64,000 nt of DNA from an uncultured Microbacterium sp. (GTDB taxonomy: Bacteria; Actinomycetota; Actinomycetes; Actinomycetales; Microbacteriaceae). The stretch lies in the NCBI GenBank assembly GCA_913774665.1, contig CAJYHN010000014.1:27143-91142 (forward strand). The letters run 5' to 3'. Position numbers and translations under genes: made by a program. Positions 8,658 through 32,809 of the stretch are shown in pieces. The notes under the pieces are model-generated. The model saw only the letters and a list, made by a program, of their open reading frames with translations, did no database searches and was not told the origin of the DNA. Numbering within the stretch: position 1 is the stretch's first letter; the number at the start of each line of letters is the position of its first letter.

Positions 8658-9173
8658 GTGACCCGGCCGCTGCATTCTTCCGAGACGCCCGTGGTCGGCG
8701 TCGTCATGGGCTCCGACTCCGACTGGCGCGTGATGAACGCCGCCAGCGAGGTGTTGACCGAGTTCGGCATCCCGCACGAGGTCGAGGTGGTCTCCGCCCA
8801 CCGCACCCCCGACAAGCTCGTCCGTTACGGGCGTGAGGCGCGCGGACGCGGGCTGCGCGCCATCATCGCGGGGGCCGGGGGAGCCGCGCACCTGCCCGGC
8901 ATGCTGGCATCCGTCACCGCCCTCCCCGTCATCGGGGTTCCCGTGCAGCTGGCGACGCTCGACGGCCTCGACTCGCTGCTCTCGATCGTCCAGATGCCCG
9001 CGGGCATCCCGGTGGCGACCGTCTCGATCAACGGGGCGAAGAACGCCGGCCTCCTCGCCGCGCGGATCCTCGGCAGCGCCGACACCGCACTCGCCGAGCG
9101 CGTCGAGGCCTACGCGCGCGATCTCGAGGCGCAGGTCGAAGAGAAGAACCGACGCCTGAAGGACTCCCTATGA
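8658..9173 (+). CDS. purE: N5-carboxyaminoimidazole ribonucleotide mutase
   Basis: A 171-residue class I PurE that converts the PurK product N5-CAIR to CAIR. Hallmarks: [10 protein letters not shown] near residue 15, SAHRTPDKL (substrate loop, with the conserved His), and [14 protein letters not shown] with the catalytic His. Length matches the family. The GTG start is fixed by the -10 spacing. Its stop overlaps the ATG of the LCP gene (ATGA), tying purine genes to the start of the glycopolymer locus. Confidence 0.95.
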
Positions 9174-10633
9174 CGCTCGCCGCCGCCCGGCCCCGCTCTC
9201 GGGCGCACGTCGTCGAGCAGCGCCCGATGCGTCATCCCGACGCGACCTCGCGGGCGGTCATGACCCGTCGCGGGTGGTGGCTCGTGGCGCTCAACTTTCT
9301 GCTGCCCGGTTCCGCTCAGGTTCTGGCGGGCAACAGGCGCCTCGGCCGATTCGGCCTCGGCGCCACCCTGGTGATGTGGACGATCCTCGTGCTCACCGGT
9401 CTCGGAGCACTGCTCATGCCGAGCGGACTGTTCGCCCTGGCGACCGGATCGTTCATCCCCGACTTCCTGTCGTGGTTCCGGCCGCTGCCGCTGACGCTCG
9501 TGCAGATCGCGCTCATCGCGTACGCCGTGCTCTGGATCGTGCTGACCATCGACACGTTGCGGTTGGTCCGTCTCGTGAAGGTCGGGCCCCTGTCCCGCGT
9601 CGCCATCGCCGTCGTCGCTGTGGCGCTGCTCGTCGTCTCCGGCTCGGGCGCGGCGTGGGCGGCGCAGGCGGCGGGAACGACCCGCGACACCTTCTCGGAG
9701 CTGTTCGCGCAGTCCGCCCCCGTCGTCCCGCCGTCCGACGGGTACTACAACATCCTCCTTCTGGGCGCCGACTCCGGCGAGGGGCGCGACTCCATGCGCT
9801 TCGACAGCATCTCGGTCGTCTCGATCAACGCCGACACCGGCGCGACGACCATCACGGGCATTCCGCGCGACATGCCGCACTTCCCGTTCGCCCCGGGGCC
9901 GATGCAGGACGAGTACCCCGACGGGCACACCGGATACGCCAACGCGACCTGCGGCTGGGGGAGCGGCATCAACCAGCTCCGCACCGAGGTCGAAGTGTGC
10001 CAGGACGGCAACAAGCTCTACCCCGGGACGAAGGAGCGCGGGACGGAGCCCGGGATCGAGGCGACGAAGGACGCCGCCGAGGGGATCATGGGCATTCAGA
10101 TCCCGTACTACGTGCTGATCGACATGAAGGGCTTCGCCGACCTCATCGACGCGCTCGGCGGCGTCGACATCGACGTCAAGGAACGCCTGCCCAAGGGCGG
10201 CCCCGCCTACGACGGTCAGCCGGTCGACGACTGGGCCTTCGGCTGGGTCGAGCCCGGCCAGCAGCACATGGACGGCGACACCGCGCAGTGGTACGCCCGC
10301 TCGCGGTACACGACGAGCGATTTCGACCGCATGCGCCGCCAGCGCGAGCTGCAGGAGGCGATTCTCGCGCAGACCACCCCGCAGAACGTGCTGACTCACT
10401 TCCAGGATGTCGCCACCGCGGGCACCAATATCGTGCAGACGGATCTGCCGCAGGGCCTGATCGCCCCGACCCTCGTGAACCTTGCGATGAAGGCGAAGGG
10501 CCAGCCGGTCGGGACGCTCGAGCTGACCCCGGCGGGTGGTGTCGACGAGTTCGACCCCGACTTCGCCCAGGTGCAGCAGATGGTGCACGACAGACTGCAC
10601 CCGGCAACCGAGACGGAGGCGCCCTCCTCGTGA
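9170..10633 (+). CDS. LytR-CpsA-Psr (LCP) family glycopolymer transferase
   Basis: A 487-residue membrane-anchored protein. The first ~180 residues include about four hydrophobic segments. The extracytoplasmic LCP domain follows: [19 protein letters not shown] with the Asp and Arg pair that binds the polyprenyl pyrophosphate, then ITGIPRDM, a central [12 protein letters not shown] region and [17 protein letters not shown] near the end. LCP enzymes attach wall glycopolymers to peptidoglycan from lipid-linked precursors. Its position at the head of a 45 kb polysaccharide locus fits that role. It is coupled to purE upstream and to a glycosyltransferase downstream by 4-base overlaps. Confidence 0.9.
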
Positions 10634-11758: not shown

Positions 11759-12706
11759 ATGACAGCGCGCGTCGGGATCGTCGTCCGTACCCGGCGGCGG
11801 CCGGACTTCCTTCGCCGCGCGCTGAGCGATATCGGTGCTCAGACGTTCGCAGAGCACCGTGTCATCGTGGTGAACGACGGGGGAGACCCCGGCGAGATCG
11901 AGGCGATCGTCGCGGAGGCCGCATTCGACGTCTCCGTCCTCCACATCGTCGACGGGCAGGGAGGACGGTGCGTCGCCGCGAATCGCGGCGTCCGCGAAGC
12001 CGGTACCGAGTACGTCGTGCTCCATGACGACGATGACCGGTGGCATCCCGAGTTCCTGTCCCGAACCGTCGCCTGGCTCGACGCGACGACTTCTGACGCG
12101 GCCGTCGCCGTGCCAACCGAGATCGTCTACGAAGAGAAGCGCGGCGGGGCGTGGGCCGAGGTCGGGCGTGCACCGTTCTGGGCGGGCATGCAACGTATCT
12201 CGCTGACCGAGATGCTCAGCGTCAACCGTGCCGTCCCCATCTCTGTGCTCTACCGGCGGTCGATCCACGACGAGATCGGCTGGTACGACGAGTCGCTCGA
12301 CGCCGTCGAGGATTGGGATCTCTACCTTCGGATCCTCCGACACGGCGGGATCGGCTTTCTCCCCGGAGAAACGCTCGCTTTCTGGACGCAGAGACCGGAT
12401 GCCGCCGGTCTCGACGCCAACAGCATGTTCGCCCTCACCGAGGCGCATGCCGCCGACGATGCACGGGTGCGCGACCGGGCACTCGCGGAGTGGATCGGGC
12501 GTGAGGGCGACGGGTTGCCGTTGTATCTCGCTTCGCTTCATCGAGAGTTGACGAGCCATATCGACGGGGCGATCGGTCACGCGTTGGAACGCTTCCGCGA
12601 GGAGATCCGCACGGACCTCCGCCGTGAAATCGACACGCACCAGCCGCTCTGGTCGCGTCTGCGGCGATGGCGTCGACGCATCGGCGGCGCGAGAGGGCGC
12701 ACCTAG
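11759..12706 (+). CDS. Glycosyltransferase family 2
   Basis: A 315-residue GT-A enzyme. It opens RVGIVVRTRRRPDFLRRAL, has VVNDGGDPGEI and the metal-binding acidic run VLHDDDDRWHPEF at about residue 80, then DWDLYLRIL near 190. The tail after residue 250 is helical and rich in Arg, suggesting contact with the membrane or a partner. A longer reading frame extends upstream, but the ATG at 11759 has the -10 spacing and the natural GT2 beginning. Its stop codon sits inside the -10 of the next gene. Confidence 0.82.
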   Translation: MTARVGIVVRTRRRPDFLRRALSDIGAQTFAEHRVIVVNDGGDPGEIEAIVAEAAFDVSVLHIVDGQGGRCVAANRGVREAGTEYVVLHDDDDRWHPEFLSRTVAWLDATTSDAAVAVPTEIVYEEKRGGAWAEVGRAPFWAGMQRISLTEMLSVNRAVPISVLYRRSIHDEIGWYDESLDAVEDWDLYLRILRHGGIGFLPGETLAFWTQRPDAAGLDANSMFALTEAHAADDARVRDRALAEWIGREGDGLPLYLASLHRELTSHIDGAIGHALERFREEIRTDLRREIDTHQPLWSRLRRWRRRIGGARGRT

Positions 12707-12709
12707 AAT
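12704..12709 (+). promoter_or_regulatory. -10 hexamer TAGAAT overlapping an upstream stop codon
   Basis: The TAG of the upstream stop is the first half of TAGAAT. Seven bases later is the ATG at 12717. One sequence ends a gene and starts a transcript. Confidence 0.55.
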
Positions 12710-12716
12710 CGGTGGA

Positions 12717-14966
12717 ATGCACGCAGGTCGGTTTCGATATGTCGTTCGCCGCCTTCGCGGGTCGAAGCTGCTGGGCTCGGCGATCCGGGGGGCGGACCGC
12801 TTCTGGTGGGCCCGAACGATCGCGCGTAGCACTCTCGTCGACCACGGCTACTACGCCGCCCAACTAGGCGTCAGGTGGGTTCCGCGGACGGCTGCCATCA
12901 TGCATTACGTGACCCGCGGATTCCGTCGGGGGATGAGCCTGAACCCGCTCTTCGACGACATCGTCGCCGGGGCGGAGCTGCCAGAGGTGCTTCGCGTGCC
13001 CGCTCTGTACGCGTACCTGCTGAGTGAGCGCGAGACCGTTCGCGTCCACCCCTGGTGGGACGCTGAGGAGTACGGCCGTGTGCACGGTGGCGCGGGGCTC
13101 GAGCACGCCTGGGCGAACATGGAGTCGGCAATCACCCTCCGGGCGGCGGGTCGATCGGTGACACTGTCCGTAGCAGAGGTGCGCCAGGTAGCCCTCCGCG
13201 GGGCGCGCTCCTGGCCTCGTCACCGCGCTCGCCCAGTGGTGCACCCCGCGACGGGCGCGAATGGCATCGTCCGACCGATTCAAGCTCGCGACCGCCGCTA
13301 TGCACGCAAACTCTCGCAGGCCGCGTCCCGTGCCGTCGCCCCGCGGCACGAGGCAGTCGTGATCCCGCTCGTCGGCGTCGACGCGTCTCAGTGGGTGTCG
13401 GCTCACGTGCTCGCCACCGTCGTACCGGAAATCATTCTGCAGGGGCACCCTCGTCGGGCGGCCTGGACGCGAGTGATCGATGAAGCGAGCGCCGACCTGA
13501 ACGTCCACACGGTGGTCGCCCTGGATCCCCGCGCGGAATTCACCGACGACGAGATCGACGCACTGCTCGACGCGACCGATGACCGACATGTTGCGATGCC
13601 TGCGCAGCGAGCACACGATGGCACTGTTGATGGGCTTGGCGCGGCGGAGACGGGGGGAGCCGCGCCGTGGGCGATCCTTTGCGATCACCCCGTCGAGGAC
13701 CTCGCCCCTCTTGATGCGATCATCTCGGCGCCGCTCCTGCACGGCAGGAGCCTCGCGCTCTCGCACGCGGTGTTGCGCGACGTGCTCGAAAGCGAGGCTC
13801 CCGTCTCCTGTGCCCAATTCGCTCGGGCGTTGAGACCCCGAGCGGGCGTGCGCGTCCTCACCACCGTCCGACCGGTCCTCGACGAACCGCTTCACATCTT
13901 CGACGAGAAGACACCGCGAGAGAGGGGCCGCACCGGCGACCGCCAGATCGCCGCTGCAATCATCGAGCAGGTCGGCTTCGATCTGCTCGCGTGGCAGCCC
14001 GGCAACGGCGTCGCCATCGTGCCGTTCCTACGTTGGAGGCGCCCCCATCCGGACGCGCAGCGCTGGGCCATCAAAATCTGTGCGCCGGCCGGACGGCAGG
14101 GAGCCGTGTGGGGTGACATGCACTTCGCGCGGGGTCTCGCGTCCGCGTTGCGCCGACGCGGGCACACGGTCATCATCGATGCGTTCGACGCGCGGGATCG
14201 TCCGACGGCCTACCTCGACGACGTCAACATCGTCGTGCGTGGACCGTACCGCATAGATCCGCTCAAGACCGGCATCAATCTGCAATGGATCATCAGCCAT
14301 CCCGACGAGATCTCGCGGAACGAGCTGGTATCCTTCGACCGGGTCTTCGCGGCATCCGTCAGTTGGTCGGAACAGGTCGGCCGCCGTTGGGGCATCGAGA
14401 TAACTCCCCTGTTGGAAGCGACCGACGTGGATCTCTTCACTCCCGGCGGTGTCGCCCGTACCGAGGAGATCGTGTTCGTCGGCACCGCGCGCGGCATCGC
14501 ACGACCGAGCGTCGTGGCGCCGCTGAGAGCCGGCATCCCGGTTCGCGTCTACGGACCGGATTGGCGGCCGTTCATCCCTCACTCGGCCATTGCGGCGCGG
14601 GCGCTACCCCACGCAGACCTCGCTCGGCGCTACGAGTCGGCGTCGATTGTTCTCAACGATCAATGGCCGGCGATGCGTCGTCACGGATTCATCGCCATGC
14701 GTCCCTTCGACGTGGTCGCCGTCGGGGGACGTGTGATCTCGGAGGACGTCGAAGGCATCGGAGAGATCTTCGGCGGTGCGGTGGTCACCTACCGCGATGC
14801 GGAACATCTCGTCGAGTTACTGCGAACGGACCCCGAGACCCTCTTCCCCGATCGTGAGACGCTGGCCCGTATCGCGGAGCGAGTCCGCAAGGAGCATTCG
14901 TTCGACGCGCGTGCGACCGTGTTGATAGAGGCGGCGCGGGACGCCGATCGCGGCCTTCGCCGTTGA
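12717..14966 (+). CDS. Large two-part glycosyltransferase-like protein
   Basis: A 749-residue cytoplasmic protein. The C-terminal ~300 residues look like a GT-B domain of the CgeB/GT1 kind: GDMHFARGLASALRRRGH, PLLEATDVDLFTPGG, EEIVFVGTARG, then ASIVLNDQWPAM and a final FDVVAVGGRVISED segment. The N-terminal part carries VDHGYYAAQLGV and IMHYVTRGFRRGMSLNPLFD, a pattern found in bacterial wall glycosyltransferases of this type. The middle (~190-450) is not recognised; its CDHPVEDLAPLDA stretch does not give a clear second catalytic domain. Neighbours place it in glycopolymer assembly; the sugar is unknown. Confidence 0.65.
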   Translation: MHAGRFRYVVRRLRGSKLLGSAIRGADRFWWARTIARSTLVDHGYYAAQLGVRWVPRTAAIMHYVTRGFRRGMSLNPLFDDIVAGAELPEVLRVPALYAYLLSERETVRVHPWWDAEEYGRVHGGAGLEHAWANMESAITLRAAGRSVTLSVAEVRQVALRGARSWPRHRARPVVHPATGANGIVRPIQARDRRYARKLSQAASRAVAPRHEAVVIPLVGVDASQWVSAHVLATVVPEIILQGHPRRAAWTRVIDEASADLNVHTVVALDPRAEFTDDEIDALLDATDDRHVAMPAQRAHDGTVDGLGAAETGGAAPWAILCDHPVEDLAPLDAIISAPLLHGRSLALSHAVLRDVLESEAPVSCAQFARALRPRAGVRVLTTVRPVLDEPLHIFDEKTPRERGRTGDRQIAAAIIEQVGFDLLAWQPGNGVAIVPFLRWRRPHPDAQRWAIKICAPAGRQGAVWGDMHFARGLASALRRRGHTVIIDAFDARDRPTAYLDDVNIVVRGPYRIDPLKTGINLQWIISHPDEISRNELVSFDRVFAASVSWSEQVGRRWGIEITPLLEATDVDLFTPGGVARTEEIVFVGTARGIARPSVVAPLRAGIPVRVYGPDWRPFIPHSAIAARALPHADLARRYESASIVLNDQWPAMRRHGFIAMRPFDVVAVGGRVISEDVEGIGEIFGGAVVTYRDAEHLVELLRTDPETLFPDRETLARIAERVRKEHSFDARATVLIEAARDADRGLRR

Positions 14967-15023: not shown

Positions 15024-16262
15024 GTGCGCTCCCTCCTCCGACGAACGGTCTGGCAGATCAACGCCGTCCGTAACCGTGATCCGCTCAGCCCGGCCCTGTT
15101 CGCTCGCCTGTTCGGCGCACGGGGACGACGCTCGTGGGATCCGACGACGGATCCGCGTCGGATCGTCCTGCTGCGAAGCGATGAGATCGGAGACACCGCG
15201 AGCACAGTGACCCTTCTCGCCGCGCTGCGAGAGCGTTGGCCCCGGGCGGTCATCCACCTCGTCGTGAAGCCGGGGCCGGCATCCATGTTCCACGCGCTGC
15301 CGACCGTGGACCGTGTCATCGAATGGGTGCCGGTGACCGATGGGTCCGCGCTCAAGCGCCAGCTCCTCACGGCCCGTCAGGGCCTGAGGCGGTTCGGACT
15401 CATGGGGTACGACCTCGCCATCCTTCCTCGGTGGGACTTCGACGACACGCCCATTCGTTTTCTGGCCGTCGCCACCCGGGCGCGATCCATCGTCGGCTTC
15501 AGCCCGGTCCCCGAGCGCGAGCCCGCGTGGCTCGGGCAGCAGGCCGCGCTCTTGACCGATGAGATCTGGCGCGGCACGACGCCGCTGCGCACAGTGGACC
15601 AGCTGCACCGCATCGCCCAGTACCTCGGGGTGCCCTGGGCGCTGCATCGATCCTCCCCGGCGGGCATGGGGCTGTTCGACGCGCGTGACGCGGAGGTTGC
15701 TGCGGATCGCGCGGGAGCGGCGGAGGACACCGGCCATGTCATCGGCTTCGGTATCGGCGCGCGTGACGCCAAGCGTCAGTGGCCCGTCGAGGAACTGGCC
15801 GCCGTCGCCGAGCGATTGACCGCGCAGCGGCCGGTGTCGGTGCGCATTCTGGGTGGTTCGGTCGACAAGGAGCGAGGAGAGCGACTGCGCGCTCTTCTCG
15901 CGGCCCGCGGCATCCGCGGTGTGGATCTCACCGGCCGACTCAGCCTCAGCGAGAGCGCGGCTGCGATCGCCGGGTGCGAGGCCTTCTTGGGCAATGACTC
16001 CGGTCTGCAGCACATCTCGAGCAGCATCAACATTCCTACCGTCGTCGTCACATGTCATCCGGCTTCAGGGTCCCCGTGGAGCGACAACGCCCCCGAACGA
16101 TTCGGGCCCTGGTCCGATCGCAGCGCGGTGCTCCAGCCGGAGCGCCCGGCTGACGGGTGCGGTGATGAGTGCGTCGCACCCGAGCCGCACTGCATCCGGG
16201 CGGTCGGAGCCGAAGAGGCTGCCGAGACGCTCGAGCTTCTGCTCGCCGGCTCGTCACGCTGA
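15024..16262 (+). CDS. Glycosyltransferase family 9, heptosyltransferase-like
   Basis: A 412-residue GT-B enzyme with GT9 features: IVLLRSDEIGDTASTVTLLAAL at the N-terminal domain (normally involving R-x-G-D), FGIGARDAKRQWP opening the donor domain, and LGNDSGLQHISSSINIP near residue 325, the conserved nucleotide-heptose binding loop. Four Cys lie near the C-terminus (CGDECVAPEPHC). GT9 proteins in Gram-negatives transfer heptose from ADP-heptose to lipopolysaccharide core. Here the gene sits immediately upstream of hldE and gmhA, so a heptose donor is the natural inference. Acceptor unknown. Confidence 0.82.
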   Translation: MRSLLRRTVWQINAVRNRDPLSPALFARLFGARGRRSWDPTTDPRRIVLLRSDEIGDTASTVTLLAALRERWPRAVIHLVVKPGPASMFHALPTVDRVIEWVPVTDGSALKRQLLTARQGLRRFGLMGYDLAILPRWDFDDTPIRFLAVATRARSIVGFSPVPEREPAWLGQQAALLTDEIWRGTTPLRTVDQLHRIAQYLGVPWALHRSSPAGMGLFDARDAEVAADRAGAAEDTGHVIGFGIGARDAKRQWPVEELAAVAERLTAQRPVSVRILGGSVDKERGERLRALLAARGIRGVDLTGRLSLSESAAAIAGCEAFLGNDSGLQHISSSINIPTVVVTCHPASGSPWSDNAPERFGPWSDRSAVLQPERPADGCGDECVAPEPHCIRAVGAEEAAETLELLLAGSSR

Positions 16263-16268
16263 CTTCGT

Positions 16269-16274
16269 TACGAT
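16269..16274 (+). promoter_or_regulatory. Candidate -10 hexamer TACGAT for hldE-gmhA
   Basis: TACGAT lies 48 bases before the hldE ATG, implying a leader of about 40 bases. No good -35 sequence is visible. Confidence 0.35.
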
Positions 16275-16322
16275 CATCCGGTTCGCCCCTCACACCCTCT
16301 TTCGCACGTCTGGATACTCCGC

Positions 16323-17807
16323 ATGTCAGCACTGCCATCGATCACCCCGCAGCATGTCCTCGGGTTCGAGGGCGCTCGAGTCATCGTCATCGGCGACGCA
16401 ATGCTCGACCGTTACGTCGACGGAGCGGTCGAGCGCATCTCACCGGAAGCGCCCATTCCCGTCCTGCGGGTGCGTAACGACCGGAGCGTCGCGGGCGGTG
16501 CAGCCAACGCCGCGATGAACATCGCCGCGCTGGGTGTGCGGACCACGCTGGTGGCTGCATGGGCCGACGACGAAGCCGGTCGCGAACTCGCGCGGCTACT
16601 GGGTGCATCGGGCGTCGAGGCAGTCTCGGTGCGCCGGGGAACGGCGCCGACCATCGAGAAGCTGCGCGTGGTGGCGGGCGCCCAGCAGATCGTGCGCGTC
16701 GATCGCGAAGACACCCAGCCGTTGCCGGCCGGTGCCGCAGACGAAGCCTTCGAAGCCGTTCGAGCGGCTCTTTCCAGCGGTTCCGACCGTGTCGCGGTGG
16801 TCGTCTCCGACTACGCCAAGGGCATGCTCGACGAAGACCTCGTTCAGCGCGTCGTCGAACTGGCGCGCGCCTCGAACGTCCCCGTCGTCGTAGACCCCAA
16901 GTCCGCTGACATTCGCAAGTACCGCGGGGCCAGCATTGTGAAACCCAACTTCACCGAGGCCCTGCAGATGGCTGGTCTCACGGCGAACGCGCCCGACGAA
17001 CAGACGTTGGATGCCATCGCCGAGCGTCTGCTCGTGGACGGTATCTCGTCGCTGGCGGTTTCCTTGTCCGCCGCCGGTGTCGAGGTCATCGAGAAGACCG
17101 CGCGCACCCGTATCCCGACCCGCGCGCGATTGGTCGCCGATGTCTCCGGCGCCGGGGACTCGGTCATCGCGGGTATCGCAGCCGGTATGGCGAGCGGTCT
17201 GACGACCTTGCAAGCTGTTCAGGTGGGCAATCTGGCGGCCGGAATTGCCTGTGGGCGTCCCGGAACTGCGGTGGTCTCCAGCGCCGACCTGCTGAACGAG
17301 CTGCTGGTCGAGTCTTCTCCCGAGGACCGTCCCGGCACCATCGAGGACTGGAACCAGCTCGCTCACCTCGTCTCTGTCGAGAAGTCCGCAGGCAAGACCG
17401 TCGTTTTCGCCAACGGTGTATTCGATCTATTGCACGCGGGCCATGTGGCTCTCCTCCGGGAGGCGCGGTCACTCGGCGATGTCCTCGTCGTCGGCGTGAA
17501 TTCCGATGAATCCACGGCACGCTTGAAGGGCCCCACCCGCCCCCTGCAACCGCAGCAGGATCGCATGCACGTGCTCGAGGCGGTCCGTTACGTCGACTTC
17601 GTCACGGTATTCGGCGAAGACACCCCGCGAGAGCTGATCCGCGCGATCGAGCCCGACATCATCGTCAAAGGGTCCGACTACCGGCCCGAGCAGGTCGTGG
17701 GCGGAGAGGATGCCAAGGCCTGGGGTGGCCGCGTGCACATCGTCAACCTCCTCGACGGCGTCTCGACGACCCGTCTCTCGCAAGGCCAGCAGGTTCGGCG
17801 CGGCTAA
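16323..17807 (+). CDS. hldE: Bifunctional heptose-7-phosphate kinase / heptose-1-phosphate adenylyltransferase
   Basis: A 494-residue fusion. Residues ~1-320 form a PfkB-type kinase with VIVIGDAMLDRYVDG, SVAGGAANAAMN and the ATP/catalytic signature DVSGAGDSVIAG. Residues ~355-494 form a nucleotidyltransferase with VVFANGVFDLLHAGHV (the HxGH loop) and VVGVNSDESTARLKG. In the known pathway the kinase makes heptose-1,7-bisphosphate and, after GmhB action, the second domain adds AMP. Both halves look intact. The domain order and length are those of Gram-negative HldE, which is notable in a Gram-positive. gmhA follows after 32 bases. Confidence 0.9.
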   Translation: MSALPSITPQHVLGFEGARVIVIGDAMLDRYVDGAVERISPEAPIPVLRVRNDRSVAGGAANAAMNIAALGVRTTLVAAWADDEAGRELARLLGASGVEAVSVRRGTAPTIEKLRVVAGAQQIVRVDREDTQPLPAGAADEAFEAVRAALSSGSDRVAVVVSDYAKGMLDEDLVQRVVELARASNVPVVVDPKSADIRKYRGASIVKPNFTEALQMAGLTANAPDEQTLDAIAERLLVDGISSLAVSLSAAGVEVIEKTARTRIPTRARLVADVSGAGDSVIAGIAAGMASGLTTLQAVQVGNLAAGIACGRPGTAVVSSADLLNELLVESSPEDRPGTIEDWNQLAHLVSVEKSAGKTVVFANGVFDLLHAGHVALLREARSLGDVLVVGVNSDESTARLKGPTRPLQPQQDRMHVLEAVRYVDFVTVFGEDTPRELIRAIEPDIIVKGSDYRPEQVVGGEDAKAWGGRVHIVNLLDGVSTTRLSQGQQVRRG

Positions 17808-17839
17808 CGCCGGAGCCGATCGAAGGAAGGGAGTCACCC

Positions 17840-18421
17840 ATGGGTGTTCTGCAGGAGAATCTCAGAGACAACGCACGACGGATGTCCGTTCTCGCGGACG
17901 ACGAGGCGTTCGGGATCGCTTTCGATCGCGCAGCGGAGATCATGGTGTCATCGCTGCGCGGCGGCGGCACGCTCTTGGCATGCGGCAACGGGGGATCGAT
18001 GACGAACGCGCAGCACTTCGCCGAGGAGCTGACCGGCCGCTTTCGAGGCAACCGCCCGCCGCTTCGGGCGATGGCGATCTCCGATCCGTCGCACCTCACG
18101 TGCGTGGCGAACGACTATGGGTACGAGTACGTCTTCTCGAAGTTCGTCGAGGCCTTCGCTCGCCCCGGTGACGTGCTTCTCGCCCTGTCGACGAGCGGAA
18201 AGTCGCCGAACGTGCTCCGTGCGGCAGAGGCGATGAAGTCGGCCGGGGGACTTGTGGTGGCATCGTCTGCCACGGCGGCGTCACCGATCGGAGCGCTCGC
18301 GGACGTCGTGATCGAACTCGGCGGCAGCCGATGGGCAGACCGGGTGCAGGAGTCGGAGCTCGTCGTCATCCACTCGCTCATGCAGGCCATCGAGGACGCG
18401 TTCGGCTACTCAGCCGAGTGA
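17840..18421 (+). CDS. gmhA: Sedoheptulose-7-phosphate isomerase (SIS domain)
   Basis: A 193-residue enzyme that converts sedoheptulose-7-phosphate to D-glycero-D-manno-heptose-7-phosphate, the first committed step. The SIS fold shows ACGNGGSMTNAQHFAEELTGRF and LLALSTSGKSPNV (phosphate loop). The C-terminal QESELVVIHSLMQAIE contains His and Glu residues at the usual GmhA metal/active-site positions. A strong GAAGGAAGGGAG precedes the ATG. The 3' end overlaps the convergent gmhB gene by 16 bases. Confidence 0.9.
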   Translation: MGVLQENLRDNARRMSVLADDEAFGIAFDRAAEIMVSSLRGGGTLLACGNGGSMTNAQHFAEELTGRFRGNRPPLRAMAISDPSHLTCVANDYGYEYVFSKFVEAFARPGDVLLALSTSGKSPNVLRAAEAMKSAGGLVVASSATAASPIGALADVVIELGGSRWADRVQESELVVIHSLMQAIEDAFGYSAE

Positions 18422-19002
18422 TCGTCCAACGCTCGTTGGACCTCCGTCGCAAAAGCAGCCAAGCTCGATGAGGTGTGGTCGGCAGCCGGGTCGTGGTCGG
18501 TGTGTATGCGCACCGTTGCGCCGCCGCCGTTACGGACGGCGAGCCGACGTCCCATTTCGACATCCGAGGCCGTGTCTCCGACCATGACCGACAGGGACCC
18601 GTCGAGGTCGGGGTTCTCCCCGAGGTAGCCGGTCGCCATTCCCGGCGCCGGTTTACGGCATTCGCAGCCTTCTGCCTCGAGATGAGGGCAATAACGGATG
18701 TCATCGATGCGACCGCCGGCGTCTTCGATCGCGCGAACCATCCGCAGATGCACACGCTCGAGATCCTCACGAGTCATCAGCCTTTTGCCGATGCCCTGTT
18801 GATTCGTGACGACGACTATGCGCGGCGACCAGTGGGCGAGCACCCGAAGAGCCTCGAGAGCGCCGGGCTCGAAACGAAATTCATCCCAGGTGCGGACGTA
18901 GCCGCCCCAGATGCGTGTGTTGATGACGCCGTCGCGGTCGAGGAAGAGACACCACGGGCGACCGACCCTGCGGCGGACGACGTCATCGATGGCCGCCGTC
19001 AT
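18406..19002 (-). CDS. gmhB: D-glycero-D-manno-heptose 1,7-bisphosphate phosphatase (HAD-IIIA)
   Basis: A 198-residue HAD phosphatase, the missing step between the two HldE activities. It has LFLDRDGVIN with catalytic Asp22 and Asp24, VVTNQQGIG, the zinc motif C-x-H ... C-x-C (CPHLEAEGCECRKPAPGM) typical of GmhB, and VGDTASDVEMG. The ATG at 19002 is preferred. A TTG at 19032 overlapping the upstream stop would add ten residues. It follows the acetyltransferase/ketoisomerase gene on the minus strand and converges on gmhA, so the heptose genes are split over two strands. Confidence 0.85.
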   Translation of the reverse strand: MTAAIDDVVRRRVGRPWCLFLDRDGVINTRIWGGYVRTWDEFRFEPGALEALRVLAHWSPRIVVVTNQQGIGKRLMTREDLERVHLRMVRAIEDAGGRIDDIRYCPHLEAEGCECRKPAPGMATGYLGENPDLDGSLSVMVGDTASDVEMGRRLAVRNGGGATVRIHTDHDPAADHTSSSLAAFATEVQRALDDHSAE

Positions 19003-19028
19003 GCCTGTCCGCCGTCGTCCGCTCGCAC

Positions 19029-19943
19029 TCAAGAGCTGGCCAGTTCGCGGAACTCTTCGTAGTCGCGGATGTAGTCCGCGTCGTCGTAGGGGTGCGAGGC
19101 GAACACGATAAGAACGGCGTCGGCACTGTAGTCGTACTGAGTGCCCCAGGTCATCTTCGGCATGTACAGACCCAGCGAAGGATCATCAAGCACGTAGACG
19201 CTGCGCTGGGTACCGTCATCGACGATGCACGAGACGCTTCCCGTCAGACAGACCAGAAACTGCTCGCACTGCCGATGCGCGTGCTCTCCGCGTACCTCTT
19301 TGGAGGGCACGCCGTGGACGAAGAACACACGTCGCGGATCGAAAGGGAGGTCGCCGGGGAGATCGATCGGCAAGAGCGCGCCACGAATGTCGCTGACCGT
19401 ACGCAGGCGGGTCAGGCCAGCGGAGATGCTTGCGCTCGGTGTCGTCTCGGGGCTCTGGCCGCCTGCCGTCTCGGTGTACCCGGCGATACGCGCGGGGTTT
19501 CCGACCACAATCGCGTACGGGGGGACATCCTTCGTGACGACGGCCCCCGCGCCGATCATGGCCTTACGCCCGATGCGGACGCCCGGCAGGATCACGGCTC
19601 CGCCGCCGAGCGACGCCCCGTCTTCTATAACCGTCGTGGCGAAGACTTCCGGGTACTGCTTGCTGCGGGGGAACGGGTCGTTGGTGAAGGTCACGTTCGG
19701 TCCGACAAACACATCGTCGCCCAATCGGATGCCGTCCCAGACCTGCACCCCGGACTTGAGAGTCACTCGGTCACCGATGCGGACATCGTTCTCGACGAAG
19801 ACGTGATCGTTGATGTTGACGTCCTCGCCGATCACAGCGCCGGGGAGCACATGCGAGAAGGCCCATACCCGGGTACCGTCCCCGACCATCGTGCTCTCAC
19901 AGATGCCCTGCTCATGGACGAAGAACCGCGTCGATTCATTCAT
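19029..19943 (-). CDS. Bifunctional sugar N-acetyltransferase / dTDP-4-oxo-6-deoxyhexose 3,4-ketoisomerase (FdtD-like fusion)
   Basis: A 304-residue fusion. Residues ~1-155 are a left-handed beta-helix acetyltransferase of the WbpD/FdtC kind, with hexapeptide turns and PYAIVVGNPARIAGY at the end. Residues ~170-304 are a WxcM/FdtA-type cupin with GEHAHRQCEQFLVCL, DDPSLGLYMPKMTWG and a YIRDYEEF tail. A comparable fusion, FdtD, is described from Shewanella denitrificans for dTDP-Fuc3NAc. The paired aminotransferase lies three genes upstream in the same operon. Whether the product is the galacto (Fuc3NAc) or gluco (Qui3NAc) epimer cannot be told by eye. AAGGAGAG precedes the ATG. Confidence 0.85.
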   Translation of the reverse strand: MNESTRFFVHEQGICESTMVGDGTRVWAFSHVLPGAVIGEDVNINDHVFVENDVRIGDRVTLKSGVQVWDGIRLGDDVFVGPNVTFTNDPFPRSKQYPEVFATTVIEDGASLGGGAVILPGVRIGRKAMIGAGAVVTKDVPPYAIVVGNPARIAGYTETAGGQSPETTPSASISAGLTRLRTVSDIRGALLPIDLPGDLPFDPRRVFFVHGVPSKEVRGEHAHRQCEQFLVCLTGSVSCIVDDGTQRSVYVLDDPSLGLYMPKMTWGTQYDYSADAVLIVFASHPYDDADYIRDYEEFRELASS

Positions 19944-20343
19944 CTGGACTCTCCTTGCGTGGTGTAAAGACGATCCGACCCGCCACAAAGCCCAAGGGCG
20001 CGGTCACGACGACGCTGAGCGCGTTCGCATATGCGGGCCAGTTCAGTGCATGGATGCCGGCGATGACGACCAGCCCGATCAAGAAGATGACGAGGTAACA
20101 CAGCGCGTAAGAGATCGCCGCTCGCGCTGATCCGTCGTTGGTGAAGACCCACCTCGCCGCGAAGACGGTCGAATATGCCAGTCCCAGGGCAAACGAGATC
20201 GTGTAGGCCAGCCAGCCCGGCATGAGATAGCTGAGACCGACGAGCAGGGCAGTGGTGACGAGGGTGTTCGTCGCTCCGACCAGGAGGAATCGCCATGCGG
20301 CTTGCCCCGTTGTGCGACGACCTCCCGGTGCGAGAGTCACCAC
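19936..20343 (-). CDS. GtrA-family polytopic membrane protein
   Basis: A 135-residue protein with four membrane segments and the GtrA pattern WRFLLVGATNTLVTTALLV, then FARWVF-like AARWVFTN in the middle and GRIVFTP at the end. GtrA proteins are proposed flippases for undecaprenyl-phosphate-linked sugars. The start is one of two consecutive GTG codons (20343 or 20340) at the 3' end of the GT2 gene; the stop overlaps the next gene by 8 bases. The tandem with a GtrB-like GT2 is the standard pairing. Confidence 0.85.
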   Translation of the reverse strand: MVTLAPGGRRTTGQAAWRFLLVGATNTLVTTALLVGLSYLMPGWLAYTISFALGLAYSTVFAARWVFTNDGSARAAISYALCYLVIFLIGLVVIAGIHALNWPAYANALSVVVTAPLGFVAGRIVFTPRKESPDE

Positions 20344-21266
20344 TCCTCGCGCTTCATCACGATCGAGATGGGGCGCTGCTTGGTGTTGTCGAAGATCCGC
20401 CAGACGTATGCCCCGACGATGCCGATCGATGTGATGGTCAGGAAGGTTGAGAACAGGATCGTCAACATGAGGGGAACATAACCGGGCTCGTTGATCTGCC
20501 CGGCAAGGTAATAGCCGAGGATCACGATCGCGGCGATGACGACCAAGAAACCTCCGAGCAGTCCCCCGACCAGGAGCACGTCGAGCGGGATATTTGTAAA
20601 GGCAAATACGCTATCCAGGAGGTACTTGACCCGCTTCCGCAGGGTCCACTGGCTCTCGCCGTCCTCGCGCGCTTGGCGCTCGTACGGGATCTCCCCCCGA
20701 CGGAAGCCCACCCAGTACAGCTGGGCGACGAGGCTGGAATTGGCCTCCGTCATCTGGACCAGCTGTCGGGCGACGGTGCGTGTGCAACCGAACACGTCGA
20801 CCCCGCCGGGGGGCATGTCGCGGGCAATGAACCGTCGGTACATGCTCCAGAACGTCCGCGCTCCGACGCTGGACAGTGCGGGATCAGCCCGGGCCGTGCG
20901 GCGCCCAACGACCACGTCAAGGGCGCCGGTCGAGAGCGCTCGCGCGAATTCGATCATGAGCTCGGCCGGCTCCTGCAGATCGGCGGCCATGACCCCGATT
21001 GCCTCGCCTCGAGCGGCCTCCAGGCCGCTGCGGATCGCGGCGAATGATCCGAAGTTGCGCGAGTGCTGCAGGAGCTGAGAACGGAAGCGCGCACCGGGTA
21101 GGGCAGCAACCAACGCATCGTACGAACCGTCGGGCGAGCCGTCGACGACGAACACCACCTCGGTGTCCGTAGGGAGCTCTCCCATCAGTCCTTCGAGCCG
21201 AGATACGAGGGCGGGGATGTTCTCCTCGTTCCCGTAGACGGGAATGACAATCGAGAACGCCGTCAC
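20337..21266 (-). CDS. GtrB/DPM1-like polyprenyl-phosphate glycosyltransferase (GT2)
   Basis: A 309-residue enzyme. The GT-A part (~1-225) has SIVIPVYGNEENIPAL, VFVVDGSPDGSYD and the donor motif AADLQEPAELM. Two C-terminal membrane segments (~235-300) match the ArnC/GtrB architecture. It is expected to load a sugar onto undecaprenyl phosphate, for flipping by the GtrA protein encoded next. The GTG start overlaps the aminotransferase stop (GTGA). The sugar is not predictable. The dTDP-aminosugar made by flanking genes is one candidate. Confidence 0.82.
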   Translation of the reverse strand: MTAFSIVIPVYGNEENIPALVSRLEGLMGELPTDTEVVFVVDGSPDGSYDALVAALPGARFRSQLLQHSRNFGSFAAIRSGLEAARGEAIGVMAADLQEPAELMIEFARALSTGALDVVVGRRTARADPALSSVGARTFWSMYRRFIARDMPPGGVDVFGCTRTVARQLVQMTEANSSLVAQLYWVGFRRGEIPYERQAREDGESQWTLRKRVKYLLDSVFAFTNIPLDVLLVGGLLGGFLVVIAAIVILGYYLAGQINEPGYVPLMLTILFSTFLTITSIGIVGAYVWRIFDNTKQRPISIVMKREEW

Positions 21267-22375
21267 CCGATGCTCCTCAGTACCCCGCAAACGCGGTCCA
21301 CTTCATCGTCGGTCAGCTCGGGGAACAACGGCAGACTGAAGACCTCGTCACACGCCGCTTCGGTCTGCGCCTTGGGCGTAGCCGGAGCGTGTGCGGAGAA
21401 GGCTGCCTGCTTCCAGTCGGGAAGGGGGAAGTGCACATCGGTCGTCACTCCCGCGCTGCGCAGATGATCCCTGACCGCGTCGCGTTGCGGGCTGCGGCAG
21501 ACGGCGAGGTGCGCGCCGTGGCCTTCGGCGGCGGGAAGGACCGTGAGGATTTCCGGGGCGATCTCGGCTCCGGCGGCGCGGTATCGCGCGATGATCTCCC
21601 GCCTTCGAGCGTTGAACCTGTCGACCAGGGGAAGGCGCAGGCGCAGGAACGCCGCCTGCATTTCATCGAGACGGGAGTTCGTCCCTCCGGGCAGCGTCGC
21701 GTCGTACTTCGTCGCCCAGCCGTACTGTCGCAGCTGACGGACGCGATCGGCGACTTCGCTCGAACGGGTGACGACAGCGCCACCATCCCCGACGGCGCCG
21801 AGATTCTTCGTTGGATAGAAACTGATGGTGGCCGCATCGCCGAAAGTCCCCGCGCGCCCGTCGCGAGAGTCGGCTCCGATGGCCTGAGCGCAGTCCTCGA
21901 CGAGTGCAATACTTCTCTCGTCGCAGAGGGAACGCAGTTCCGCGATGTCACCGACGTGGCCGTAGAGGTGGGTGACGACGACGACCCCTACTTCGTGGTC
22001 GAGGACGTCGCGGACTGTGTCGGCTGTCAGACAGAGCGTTGTGGCATCCACATCCGCATAGCGGGGGGTCAGGCCAGCGCGTTTGACCGCTGTTGACGTG
22101 TATCCACCAGCATTGCCCGCCGTGACGACAACCGAGCGGCCCGCGGGCATTACCGCCTTCACGGCCAGTTCGAGAGCGTCCGTTCCGTTGGCGACTCCTA
22201 CCGCGTGATCGACGCCGACATACGCCGCGAGCTCGGACTCGAATGCGCGGTGGTGGGTGCCGTGCACCGCATAGCCCGAATCGATGACCTCGGCGGCTGC
22301 GCGCAGGAGAAGGTCACGATCTCGCCGCAAGCCCCGGGAGAGGTCATTGAAGGGGATCGCAGGATGTTCGCTCAT
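21263..22375 (-). CDS. DegT/DnrJ/EryC1/StrS sugar aminotransferase, FdtB-like
   Basis: A 370-residue PLP enzyme. Visible: ANGTDALELAV (phosphate binding), THLYGHVGDIAEL, VEDCAQAIGA with the Asp that contacts the pyridine nitrogen (~161), and FYPTKNLGAVGDGGA with Lys190 as the Schiff-base residue. Size and motifs match 3-aminotransferases that act on dTDP-3-oxo-6-deoxyhexose. The fused ketoisomerase/acetyltransferase in the same operon makes that assignment likely. AAGGA lies before the ATG, and a hairpin sits in the 231-base leader. Confidence 0.85.
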   Translation of the reverse strand: MSEHPAIPFNDLSRGLRRDRDLLLRAAAEVIDSGYAVHGTHHRAFESELAAYVGVDHAVGVANGTDALELAVKAVMPAGRSVVVTAGNAGGYTSTAVKRAGLTPRYADVDATTLCLTADTVRDVLDHEVGVVVVTHLYGHVGDIAELRSLCDERSIALVEDCAQAIGADSRDGRAGTFGDAATISFYPTKNLGAVGDGGAVVTRSSEVADRVRQLRQYGWATKYDATLPGGTNSRLDEMQAAFLRLRLPLVDRFNARRREIIARYRAAGAEIAPEILTVLPAAEGHGAHLAVCRSPQRDAVRDHLRSAGVTTDVHFPLPDWKQAAFSAHAPATPKAQTEAACDEVFSLPLFPELTDDEVDRVCGVLRSIG

Positions 22376-24522: not shown

Positions 24523-25089
24523 ATGACGCGCGGCGAACGGAACACCTTCAAAATGGCAGACCGCCACGTACGGTGGGGACGGGTCTGCGCGACCGGTGTT
24601 GCCATAGCGGTGGCCGTCCTTCCGCTAAGCGCGTGCGCCACCCCTCAGAACGGTCCCGGCGCGGTGGCCTCTGCTTCGCCGACCGGCACCCCTGATGCAT
24701 TCCCGCCGGAGACACCCACCCCGGTCGTTTCGCCGACGTCGACCGACGAGCCGAGTGCCGCTCCCTCGGATTCTCCTGCTCCGGCGCCGTCCGCGTCGAG
24801 TTCGACGATCACTGTCACGATCGCCAACTCGGGTACGGACGAGCAGGGGGTCTTCGCTTCCGGCCTCGTGACCGGCGCGACCGGCGGGGAAGGGACGTGC
24901 ATGCTGACCGCGACCTCGACCGACGGACGGGTGCTCGAGGCTCAAGCCGCCGCACACGCCACGCCCGCCGCCCTGAACTGCGGCATCCTGCGGATCGCGG
25001 CCGCCCCCGGTGATTGGTCGCTCGTCCTCAGCTTCTCATCGTCGGCGTCGACGGGGTCGTCTGAGCCGGTTGCGGTCCGTCGATCGTGA
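24523..25089 (+). CDS. Secreted lipoprotein with Pro/Ser/Thr linker
   Basis: A 188-residue protein. The signal sequence ends LPLSAC, a lipobox with the lipidated Cys at about residue 38. The next ~55 residues are a Ser/Thr/Pro-rich linker, then a ~95-residue beta-rich domain with two Cys (GTCML and LNCGIL) that may form a disulfide. The ATG at 24523 lies 6 bases after CATACT, an imperfect leaderless -10; 24553 is an alternative start. Its stop overlaps the LGFP-repeat gene (GTGA), so the two are co-translated and both extracytoplasmic. The function is unknown. Confidence 0.7.
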   Translation: MTRGERNTFKMADRHVRWGRVCATGVAIAVAVLPLSACATPQNGPGAVASASPTGTPDAFPPETPTPVVSPTSTDEPSAAPSDSPAPAPSASSSTITVTIANSGTDEQGVFASGLVTGATGGEGTCMLTATSTDGRVLEAQAAAHATPAALNCGILRIAAAPGDWSLVLSFSSSASTGSSEPVAVRRS

Positions 25090-28003: not shown

Positions 28004-28270
28004 GTGAGCGACGATCAGGTTCTATCGCCGGCAGCAGTCGAGGCGGTTTCGCTCGAACGGGCGTTGAAAGACGTCGAGGTGGCGAACGCGAGGGTGATCG
28101 CCCTCACCCGCCAGGTTCTGGAGCGGGAGGAACGGGTAGCCGAACTCGAGTACGACGTCGTACAGCTCAAGCGTCTCCTCGATCCCCGACGCAAGATGGA
28201 GCATCTCTTCCGGAAGAACCATTCCCTCTACGTGATTGGTCGGCAGGCGAAGCGGATGCTGGGGCGGTGA
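28004..28270 (+). CDS. Small coiled-coil protein ahead of a GT2 gene
   Basis: An 88-residue protein starting at GTG 28004 (VSDDQVLSPAAV). Residues ~15-65 form a heptad-like coiled coil (ALKDVEVANARVIALTRQV then REERVAELEYDVV). The last 25 residues are basic (KMEHLFRKNHSLYVIGRQAKRM). It has no membrane segment and no known catalytic motif. Its stop overlaps the glycosyltransferase start (GTGA). Similar coiled-coil stretches are often fused to glycosyltransferases, so a partner or scaffold role is a reasonable guess. The family is not recognised. Confidence 0.6.
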   Translation: MSDDQVLSPAAVEAVSLERALKDVEVANARVIALTRQVLEREERVAELEYDVVQLKRLLDPRRKMEHLFRKNHSLYVIGRQAKRMLGR

Positions 28271-30638: not shown

Positions 30639-30665
30639 CCTGCGTACGTGTCGGAGGAGGACCTC

Positions 30666-31529
30666 ATGAAGAACATCGTCGTGATCACGGGAGCCGGTGG
30701 CTATGTCGGCAGGCACGTCACGAGGGCTGTCGCGGAGCTTGGTTACGAAGCCGTGGCGGTCGTCCGCCGCCATCGCGAGGGTGATCTCGACATGGCGACG
30801 CGTGTCGTCGAGGCCGATGTGCTCGCTCCGGGATTCGATATCGCGACCGTGGCGGCGTCCGATCAGATCGAAGCTGTCATTCACCTCGCGTGGCAGGATG
30901 GCTTCGTCCATAATGCCCCGTCTCACCTGGCCCGCCTGTCCGACCATTACCGGTTCCTGACCTCAATGGTGGATTCGGGCATCCACCGCATCGCAGCGCT
31001 CGGCTCGATGCATGAGATCGGTTATTGGGAGGGCGCCGTCACAGCGGAGACTCCCACGAACCCCGCGACCCTCTACGGAATCGCCAAGGACGCGCTGCGC
31101 CGATCGGCGATGCTCTCGATCGCGGATCGAGCGGAGTTCGTCTGGCTCAGGGCCTATTACATCTTGGGCGACGACCGGCGTAACAGGTCGATCTTCGCCA
31201 AGCTGCTCGAGGCGTCCGACCGAGGCGAGAAAGTCTTCCCGTTCACGTCCGGACGGACGCTGTACGACTTCATCGACGTCGCCGAACTGGGGCGTCAGAT
31301 CGCGGTGGCGGCGACTGCTGACGGTGTGACAGGCATCGTGAACGTGTCCTCCGGCGAGCCCGAGTCCCTCGCGAGTCGTGTCGAGCGCTTCATCGCCGAG
31401 AACCGGCTCGATATCACCCTGCAGTACGGCGCCTTTCCCGACCGTCCGTACGACTCCCCGGGAATCTGGGGGGAAGCGGGCAAGATCCGCGCGCTCATGG
31501 CGCGCTCTCGCTTCCCTCACTCCGTGTGA
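30666..31529 (+). CDS. NAD-dependent epimerase/dehydratase (extended SDR)
   Basis: A 287-residue Rossmann protein with ITGAGGYVGRHVTRAV (NAD binding) and a shortened active-site loop: Ser in ALGSMHEIGYWEG and YGIAKDALRR as the Y-x3-K pair. GGAGGAGG precedes the ATG at 30666; a GTG at 30648 is less supported. It could epimerise or reduce a nucleotide-sugar made in this locus. It lacks an obvious HldD signature, so I do not assign the heptose 6-epimerase step. It ends 46 bases before the convergent Wzt gene. Confidence 0.75.
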   Translation: MKNIVVITGAGGYVGRHVTRAVAELGYEAVAVVRRHREGDLDMATRVVEADVLAPGFDIATVAASDQIEAVIHLAWQDGFVHNAPSHLARLSDHYRFLTSMVDSGIHRIAALGSMHEIGYWEGAVTAETPTNPATLYGIAKDALRRSAMLSIADRAEFVWLRAYYILGDDRRNRSIFAKLLEASDRGEKVFPFTSGRTLYDFIDVAELGRQIAVAATADGVTGIVNVSSGEPESLASRVERFIAENRLDITLQYGAFPDRPYDSPGIWGEAGKIRALMARSRFPHSV

Positions 31530-32805: not shown

Positions 32806-32809
32806 GGGT

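What the first reader, a model, noticed from the sequence alone, without database searches (positions are those of the whole stretch)
15024..19002. Nucleotide-activated heptose pathway in a Gram-positive actinobacterium
GmhA, the bifunctional HldE kinase/adenylyltransferase and GmhB, all with intact motifs, lie together with a GT9 heptosyltransferase-like gene. In Gram-negatives this set makes ADP-D-glycero-beta-D-manno-heptose for lipopolysaccharide core. Here there is no outer membrane, and the genes sit in an LCP/galactofuranan/rhamnose wall locus, so a heptose-containing wall glycopolymer is the inference. ADP-heptose is also a known innate immune agonist (ALPK1), which would make its production by this bacterium notable. 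No clear HldD (6-epimerase) is present, so the D,D form may be used directly.
Basis: partly seen in the sequence, partly recalled or inferred. Interest (0 to 1): 0.75.

Follow-up and report, generated by a model that had tools for sequence, protein, structure and literature searches.

The report
Heptose cassette in Microbacterium wall-polysaccharide locus
A few species of the Gram-positive genus Microbacterium carry, inside a swappable surface-polysaccharide gene cluster, a complete set of genes for making an activated seven-carbon sugar best known from Gram-negative outer membranes, so their cell wall polysaccharide probably contains heptose.

Summary
GT9 (15024-16262), HldE (16323-17807), GmhA (17840-18421) and convergent GmhB (18406-19032, or 19002 if ATG is used) are intact, under purifying selection, and match HldE/GmhA/GmhB far better than ribokinase or glycerol-phosphate cytidylyltransferase. 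No HldD reaches its cut-off in the genome.

(1) The genome holds a second, different heptose cluster on another contig (GmhA, GmhB, two HldE, three GT9); 51 of 299 family genomes have some HldE. (2) The window type is rare: 12 of 366 same-genus genomes plus one other-genus genome of the family sample. In a tree its HldE falls with four Gram-negative enzymes and three rows of its own phylum. (3) It is a block GT9-HldE-GmhA-GmhB in an LCP/Wzm-Wzt/rhamnose locus. A GT2 gene (28267-29394) occurs in the same 12 of 366 genomes. In three cassette-free relatives, RgpF (rhamnan synthesis) lies in the matching interval.

Best reading: an exchangeable module that makes ADP-D,D-heptose and builds it into a surface polysaccharide, probably wall-linked. 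The enzymes are near-certain; the polymer is inferred. NDP-heptose enzymes in actinobacteria are already published, so this is a variant of a known kind.

The parts
15024..16262 (+). GT9 glycosyltransferase, heptosyltransferase-like
   Evidence: PF01075 63.7 bits; model pLDDT 73 matches GT9 3tov, E. coli WaaF 1psw and WaaC 2h1h best in PDB; G12-D13, D261 and H266 of WaaC conserved, R at the K192 column. Below the NCBIfam heptosyltransferase I/II/III cut-offs.
16323..17807 (+). HldE, heptose-7-phosphate kinase / heptose-1-phosphate nucleotidyltransferase
   Evidence: HldE family by a wide margin; 44% identical to E. coli HldE over 474 columns; motifs SGAGDS, NGVFDLLHAGH, LLDGVSTT; orthologues 73-86% in 12 further genomes.
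17840..18421 (+). GmhA, sedoheptulose-7-phosphate isomerase
   Evidence: PRK00414 180 bits; 1x94 phosphoheptose isomerase 169 bits, with the aligned H, E, Q and H of the zinc site (site recalled) kept.
18406..19032 (-). GmhB, heptose-1,7-bisphosphate 7-phosphatase (ATG start possible at 19002)
   Evidence: PRK08942 133.9 bits, PDB 4pnh 102.6 bits; DxD motif LDRDG and CPH...CEC loop present.
28267..29394 (+). GT2 glycosyltransferase that accompanies the cassette (GT2_28)
   Evidence: PF00535 49.8 bits; found at E<=1e-30 in 12 of 366 genus genomes, the same 12 that carry type A HldE, and in G132.
12624..14966 (+). Large glycosyltransferase of the locus (GTx), upstream of GT9
   Evidence: PF13524 61 bits; also present, 45-48% identical, in 3 loci without the cassette.
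9170..10633 (+). LCP glycopolymer transferase beside purK-purE
   Evidence: PF03816 84.4 bits, TIGR00350 70.8 bits; next to purE in 13 of 13 type A stretches and 20 of 20 cassette-free ones.
19029..22375 (-). Variable module: hexapeptide-FdtA fusion, GtrA-like, GT2 (ArnC/PgfS-like), DegT aminotransferase
   Evidence: this module is in 3 of 13 type A loci (window, G953, G711).
25086..27770 (+). LGFP-repeat protein, probably wall-associated
   Evidence: PF08310, 10 repeats, 258 bits.
29352..30638 (+). AT3 acyltransferase
   Evidence: PF01757 58.1 bits.
30648..31529 (+). NAD-dependent epimerase/dehydratase (SDR_30), not HldD by score
   Evidence: PF01370 77.5 bits; best solved structure MoeE5 60.9 bits; in 45 of 366 genomes, so not tied to heptose.
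31576..33721 (-). Wzt (with Wzt_C domain) and Wzm polysaccharide ABC exporter
33786..37068 (-). RmlCD fusion, RmlB, RmlA: dTDP-L-rhamnose synthesis

Best explanation
[quoted passage not shown] The partner GT2_28 most likely adds the next or previous residue. The polymer, which probably also contains rhamnose (Rml genes), is exported by Wzm/Wzt and may be joined to peptidoglycan by the neighbouring LCP protein. The cassette is one of several alternative modules at a variable polysaccharide locus beside purK-purE in Microbacterium. In three cassette-free relatives an RgpF rhamnan-type gene occupies the interval between GTx and AT3 that holds the cassette in type A loci. Shown: gene identities, intact motifs, synteny, co-occurrence, purifying selection. 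Inferred: the reaction products, use of the D,D form, the heptose-containing polymer and its wall linkage.
For: Family scores and motifs. GT9 model closest to a Veillonella GT9 and heptosyltransferases WaaF and WaaC. GT9-HldE-GmhA-GmhB block in 13 of 13 type A loci; Wzt, Wzm, RmlA, RmlB, GT2_28 and SDR downstream in all 12 whose stretch reaches that far. GT2_28 in 12 of 12 type A and 0 of 354 other genus genomes (one-sided Fisher p about 1e-22 with genomes as independent units). RgpF in 10 of 20 purE loci without the cassette and 0 of 13 type A stretches of 12.5-64 kb, directly between GTx and AT3 in G832, G986 and G768. dN/dS 0.06-0.29. In 6 of 7 type A genomes searched with the second-cluster HldE the only match was the type A gene, so the cassette must suffice there.
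Against: No sugar analysis or enzyme assay exists in this work. GT9, GmhA, GmhB and the HldE kinase half fall below NCBI equivalog cut-offs, so the exact substrates are inferred. The LCP protein is beside purE in all 20 compared loci without the cassette too, so it is not specific to the heptose polymer; the product could be an unattached capsule. The 20 loci were not random: 8 were picked because they carry SDR_30, and these supply 8 of the 10 RgpF cases (8 of 8, against 2 of the other 12). The 12 type A genomes are related, so the Fisher p overstates independence. In 3 of the 12 genus type A genomes (G000, G1041, G824) another HldE-like match exists (partial in G824), and also in G132, so the NDP-heptose pool there need not come from the cassette alone.
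Confidence: 0.68

Rival explanations
1. The enzymes make NDP-heptose, but the heptose goes into a capsule or exopolysaccharide that is not linked to peptidoglycan; the LCP gene serves other polymers.
For: LCP follows purE in 20 of 20 cassette-free loci as well, so it is a fixed neighbour and not a cassette partner. Wzm/Wzt export is used for capsules as well as wall polymers (established knowledge, recalled).
Against: LCP is close upstream of the block in 12 of 13 type A loci, and an LGFP protein, probably wall-associated, is inside the locus.
Confidence: 0.2
2. The heptose is further modified before use (6-deoxy, C4/C6-epimerised or amino form), for example by SDR_30 or by the DegT/FdtA module, so that the polymer holds a modified heptose.
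For: SDR_30 with a YxxxK stretch is in all 12 type A loci that reach that far; DegT and FdtA are next door in the window.
Against: SDR_30 is also in 33 genomes of 366 without type A HldE. DegT/FdtA is in only 3 of 13 type A loci and fits a dTDP-amino-sugar route fed by the Rml genes (inference).
Confidence: 0.15
3. The genes serve a heptose-containing secondary metabolite, as in septacidin or hygromycin B producers.
For: Known role of NDP-heptose in actinomycetes.
Against: The conserved neighbours that I could name are polysaccharide genes; synteny with an exporter, Rml and purE-LCP.
Confidence: 0.03
4. The enzymes are paralogues acting on another phosphosugar, not heptose.
For: Scores below several NCBI equivalog cut-offs.
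Against: Complete four-step set with a GT9; the kinase half is closest to a solved heptose-7-phosphate kinase (4e84) and the other half to 5x9q, deposited as a putative cytidylyltransferase; HldE groups with E. coli HldE in the tree; nucleotidyltransferase half above cut-off.
Confidence: 0.06

Closest known systems
ADP-L-glycero-D-manno-heptose pathway of E. coli and other Gram-negatives (GmhA, HldE, GmhB, HldD, WaaC/WaaF)
   Same: GmhA, bifunctional HldE (44% identity to E. coli), GmhB and a GT9 enzyme with the WaaC/WaaF fold and motif residues.
   Different: No HldD in the genome, no LPS setting; genes lie in an LCP/Wzm-Wzt/rhamnose surface polysaccharide locus; convergent GmhB; one dedicated GT2.
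Actinobacterial NDP-heptose synthetases (didomain and tridomain; Tang et al. 2018 PNAS and 2022 Sci China Life Sci, titles seen in a reference list only; Tang et al. 2024 Science, known through two commentaries)
   Same: Same four-step chemistry from sedoheptulose 7-phosphate, in actinobacteria.
   Different: Window HldE is didomain and falls outside the two large actinobacterial HldE groups of the tree, with Gram-negative enzymes and three same-phylum rows. Its STT motif has V, not R, at position 5.
Second heptose cluster of the same genome (L011:5581-15899; GmhB, GmhA, two HldE, three GT9, two GT4-like)
   Same: Also codes a full GmhA/HldE/GmhB set with GT9 enzymes.
   Different: 37-40% HldE identity to the window protein, other gene order, no exporter, LCP or Rml among the ten genes annotated there, and a kind common in the family.
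ABC-exporter polysaccharide loci with RgpF (rhamnan synthesis protein F) beside purE in other Microbacterium
   Same: In G832, G986 and G768: same flank, exporter, GTx, AT3, SDR, LGFP and an RmlCD-matching gene.
   Different: RgpF lies between GTx and AT3, where type A loci have the heptose cassette and further genes; gene order differs in part.

Membership tests
ADP-heptose biosynthesis pathway | GmhA, HldE (or HldA+HldC) and GmhB all encoded | tested here: met
   all three also in 12 further loci (GmhB cut off by the contig end in G920).
ADP-heptose biosynthesis pathway | HldD 6-epimerase (for the L,D end product) | tested here: not met
   Best of 6 hits in the genome 79.7 bits, cut-off 274.6; two of 14 control genomes pass the cut-off. 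The pathway up to ADP-D,D-heptose does not need it.
ADP-heptose biosynthesis pathway | Enzymes convert S7P to ADP-heptose | not testable with these tools
   Needs enzyme assay.
HldE (NCBIfam NF008454/TIGR02198/TIGR02199) | Score above curated cut-offs | tested here: inconclusive
   TIGR02199 181.8 vs 181.5 (passes); TIGR02198 292.7 vs 345 and NF008454 449.1 vs 521 (below).
HldE | PfkB GAGD motif, HxGH motif, (F/L)xxGxSTT motif (first two recalled, third from PMC11461863) | tested here: met
   SGAGDS, LLHAGH, LLDGVSTT; same in all 13 type A proteins.
NTP-promiscuous heptose nucleotidyltransferases (STTR5) | Arg at position 5 of (F/L)xxGxSTT (rule from PMC11573728, PMC11461863) | tested here: not met
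   V in all 13 type A proteins; R in both second-cluster HldE, though only HldE1 (FHPGRSTT) fits the whole motif. PMC11461863 notes that the Arg is not strictly needed for promiscuity.
GT9 heptosyltransferase | PF01075 domain and fold | tested here: met
   63.7 bits vs 22; Foldseek E 3e-17 to 3tov, 5e-17 to WaaF.
GT9 heptosyltransferase | NCBIfam heptosyltransferase I/II/III equivalog cut-offs | tested here: not met
   I 51, II 63 and III 40 bits vs 185.3, 134.6 and 170.2; donor and acceptor are open.
GDP-heptose (HddA/HddC) pathway | HddA-type kinase and alpha-specific GmhB | tested here: not met
   For the cassette only: kinase half is PfkB/HldE type and the GmhB alpha model scores 79.8 vs 133.9 for the beta model. 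The rest of the genome was not searched for HddA/HddC.
Wall-linked (LCP) glycopolymer locus | LCP transferase, polysaccharide exporter and GTs clustered | tested here: met
Wall-linked (LCP) glycopolymer locus | Polymer covalently attached to peptidoglycan | not testable with these tools
   Needs chemistry.

The most novel reading that the evidence does not exclude
A heptose module of the HldE lineage shared with Gram-negatives has been taken into a Gram-positive surface-polysaccharide locus, where it is exchanged as a unit (GT9-HldE-GmhA-GmhB plus GT2_28) for an RgpF rhamnan module. Heptose would then be a serotype-like, switchable component of an actinobacterial wall, made by a strain that carries a second and unrelated heptose cluster as well.
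Probability: 0.45. Interest if true: 0.65.

Novelty: new variant of a known kind. Interest (0 to 1): 0.5.

Why it matters
A commentary on the cross-kingdom heptose work says that only limited studies show uses of heptose (LPS, capsules, protein heptosylation, natural products) and that it may have more roles in its producers than are known (PMC11573728). This locus gives a concrete, testable role in a Gram-positive surface polysaccharide, with natural strain pairs (heptose type versus RgpF type at one locus) and a named partner glycosyltransferase. If heptose is present, it is a candidate surface marker for phage and host recognition in Microbacterium, and it adds to the bacteria that could make ALPK1 agonists; neither was tested here.

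Tried and rejected
SDR_30 as a heptose-specific enzyme or HldD substitute: rejected as specific, because it occurs in 45 of 366 genus genomes, 33 of them without type A HldE.

Ribokinase or glycerol-phosphate cytidylyltransferase identity for the two HldE halves: rejected by scores.

GDP-heptose route for the cassette: disfavoured, since the kinase is PfkB/HldE type and GmhB scores higher with the beta model.

A close relative on a plasmid or phage: none. 90 plasmid records and 123 phage records matched HldE, all below 60% identity.

Structure of GT2_28: predicted with mean pLDDT 45 from 5 sequences, too poor, so not searched.

Weak points of the tree: long branches (type A stem 1.42, E. coli 1.11), only four Gram-negative rows, the joining branch is 98/80, and three rows of the same phylum fall in the same group. 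Origin by transfer, and the donor, are therefore inferences. Four of 92 HldE rows were dropped before the tree (one duplicate fragment, one truncated, two with stops inside).

Genus, family and phylum searches scored only the top 3-6 candidates per genome, so extra copies could be missed; the family and phylum sets were samples of larger groups.

Papers on a heptose-containing wall polymer in Microbacterium or other actinobacteria: I recognised none from titles and abstract openings (searches listed 20 of 33 and 20 of 41 papers). PMC10892373 reports heptose only in mixed biofilms (passages). Passages of PMC7705670, PMC12786566, PMC9862828 and PMC12113805 were also looked at and named no such polymer. 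The library lacks most subscription papers.
Full report
1. What is there. The ORFs at 15024-16262 (+), 16323-17807 (+), 17840-18421 (+) and 18406-19032 (-) are a GT9 glycosyltransferase, HldE, GmhA and GmhB. GT9, HldE and GmhA lie 60 and 32 bases apart on one strand, so they look like one operon; GmhB converges on GmhA and overlaps it by 16 bases. HldE matches NF008454 with 449 bits over residues 14-485. Its kinase half gives 292.7 bits to the HldE kinase model against 65.4 to ribokinase, and its nucleotidyltransferase half gives 181.8 bits (cut-off 181.5) against 51.4 to glycerol-3-phosphate cytidylyltransferase. Best solved structures are the heptose-7-phosphate kinase 4e84 and 5x9q, deposited as a putative cytidylyltransferase. 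The protein is 44% identical to E. coli HldE over 474 columns, 50% in the nucleotidyltransferase half. GmhA is closest to the phosphoheptose isomerase 1x94 and GmhB to the heptose-bisphosphate phosphatase 4pnh. GT9 keeps the G-D, D and H positions of WaaC and has an arginine at the K192 column (the roles of these residues are recalled). Its model (pLDDT 73) matches a Veillonella GT9, WaaF and WaaC best. The kinase half, full-length HldE, GmhA, GmhB and GT9 score below NCBI's equivalog cut-offs. So the family is sure and the exact substrate is inferred.

2. HldD. The HldD model has six hits in the whole genome, best 79.7 bits against a cut-off of 274.6; two of 14 control genomes pass it.

3. 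A second heptose cluster. The same genome has, on contig C13, another set: GmhB, GmhA, two HldE-like genes, three GT9 and two GT4-like genes. The window HldE is 37% and 40% identical to these two in a joint alignment. HldE-like genes are common: 51 of 299 family genomes carry one at E<=1e-40, from 24 of 85 genera. Leaving out the window genome and G132, 41 of the other 49 have two copies and 8 have one, at 35-44% identity. In the phylum sample 45 of 396 genomes have one, none above 43% identity to the window protein apart from the window genome itself.

4. The window type (type A) is rare. It is in 12 of 366 same-genus genomes: the window's and 11 others at 73-86% identity. Fifteen more genus genomes have only the other type, and three of the 12 (G000, G1041, and G824 with a partial match) have a further HldE-like match. 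One further type A case is G132 in another genus of the family (78%). The genus is Microbacterium by inference: type A contigs of same-genus genomes agree in length and position with records named M. testaceum NS220, M. enclense NIO-1002 and M. hominis NBRC 15708. Six of seven type A genomes searched with the second-cluster HldE gave only the type A gene; G132 also had the other type.

5. Tree. In an 88-row tree (4 of 92 rows dropped) the 13 type A proteins form one group (100/100). They join four Gram-negative HldE (98/80), then three other same-phylum rows (100/98), apart from the two large actinobacterial HldE groups. Long branches, few Gram-negative rows and the three same-phylum rows make the origin an inference. 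The STT motif has V at position 5 in all 13 type A proteins. In the second cluster both HldE have R there (FHPGRSTT, YLPHRSTT), and most relatives of its second HldE have H. By the published rule (PMC11573728 and PMC11461863, part 1 of 2 of each text read) the window enzyme lacks the mark of broad NTP use; PMC11461863 adds that the mark is not strictly needed.

6. Locus anatomy. I compared the window with 12 type A loci. GT9-HldE-GmhA-GmhB is a block in 13 of 13 (GmhB cut by the contig end in G920). purK-purE-LCP lies upstream, a few kilobases away, in 12 of 13; in G132 it is about 20 kb away and the block is inverted. LGFP protein, GT2_28, SDR_30, Wzt, Wzm, RmlB and RmlA follow in all 12 whose stretch reaches that far (G920's contig ends first). 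AT3 is missing at that place in G953 and G711. The FdtA/GtrA/GT2/DegT module is in 3 of 13. dN/dS of the four cassette genes against the window is 0.06-0.29 in 12 comparisons each, with pS of 0.48-0.74, so dS is rough.

7. Co-occurrence. GT2_28 (28267-29394) was found in 12 of 366 genus genomes, the same 12 that have type A HldE. In G920 it is on a different contig from HldE. SDR_30 was found in 45 of 366, including all 12, so it is not heptose-specific.

8. What is there without the cassette. I took 20 cassette-free genus genomes: 8 chosen because they carry SDR_30, and 12 other single-contig genomes, three of which have the second-type HldE. purE was found in 20 of 20 and LCP follows it in 20 of 20; Wzm and Wzt matches (36-71%) are within 20 kb in 19 of 20. 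RgpF is present in 10 of these 20 (8 of the 8 SDR_30 genomes, 2 of the other 12) and in 0 of 13 type A stretches of 12.5-64 kb; PF05045 was confirmed on three of them. In those three (G832, G986, G768) it sits between GTx and AT3, the interval that holds the heptose cassette and further genes in type A loci. Thus purE marks a variable polysaccharide locus in the genus, and the cassette looks like one of its alternative modules.

9. Composition. Genes from 11.4 to 40.6 kb have GC3 of 0.74-0.87, most below 0.83; most neighbouring genes are 0.85-0.94. This fits a variable, partly imported island.

10. Mechanism. Sedoheptulose 7-phosphate (GmhA) to heptose 7-phosphate, (HldE kinase) to the 1,7-bisphosphate, (GmhB) to the 1-phosphate, (HldE) to ADP-heptose, then GT9 to a lipid-linked acceptor, elongation with GT2_28 and other GTs, export by Wzm/Wzt, possible attachment by LCP. 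The first four steps are strongly inferred from family membership; the last ones from gene order and co-occurrence only.

11. Known versus new. NDP-heptose enzymes are known to be widespread. Papers on actinobacterial tridomain synthetases and on septacidin heptose exist; I saw titles and passages citing them, not the papers, which were not held. A GDP-heptose pathway in M. tuberculosis is described in PMC7705670 (passages). I recognised no paper on a heptose wall polymer of Microbacterium in the listings. The finding is a real, well-conserved variant of a known pathway in what looks like a new genomic setting, not a new kind of system.

Noticed in passing
L011:5581-15899 (G000 contig 13, outside the window): Second heptose cluster: GT9, GmhB, GT9, two GT4-like, GmhA, HldE1, SDR, GT9, HldE2. 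HldE1 has FHPGRSTT, the published mark of broad NTP use.
   Followed up: partly
window 19029-29394 versus 15024-18421: The locus looks mosaic: GT9, HldE and GmhA are nearest to the M. testaceum group (HldE 84-86% vs 76%), but the FdtA-DegT module, LGFP protein and GT2_28 are nearest to G953/G711 (LGFP 83% vs 57-68% elsewhere; GT2_28 83% vs 66-73%).
   Followed up: partly
window 11360-40585: Lower third-position GC than most of the neighbouring genes, marking a polysaccharide island between LCP and the GT2 gene at 41628.
   Followed up: partly
window 15024-16262, C-terminal part: Three cysteines (residues 379, 383, 390) are invariant in 7 aligned type A GT9 proteins; E. coli WaaC and WaaF lack them in the alignment. 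A metal site is possible.
   Followed up: no
window 22607-24385: 592-aa protein with no NCBIfam or Pfam match at E 0.001, present in 6 of 13 type A loci (window, G953, G711, G1041, G824, G1005), on the opposite strand in three of them.
   Followed up: no
window 44019-46085: DUF6541 protein; remote relatives (29-36%) turn up inside other polysaccharide loci beside purE in the genus.
   Followed up: no
window 50366-52279: GlfT2-type galactofuranosyltransferase beyond the island; the stretches of G755 and G132 also hold one (75% and 43%).
   Followed up: no
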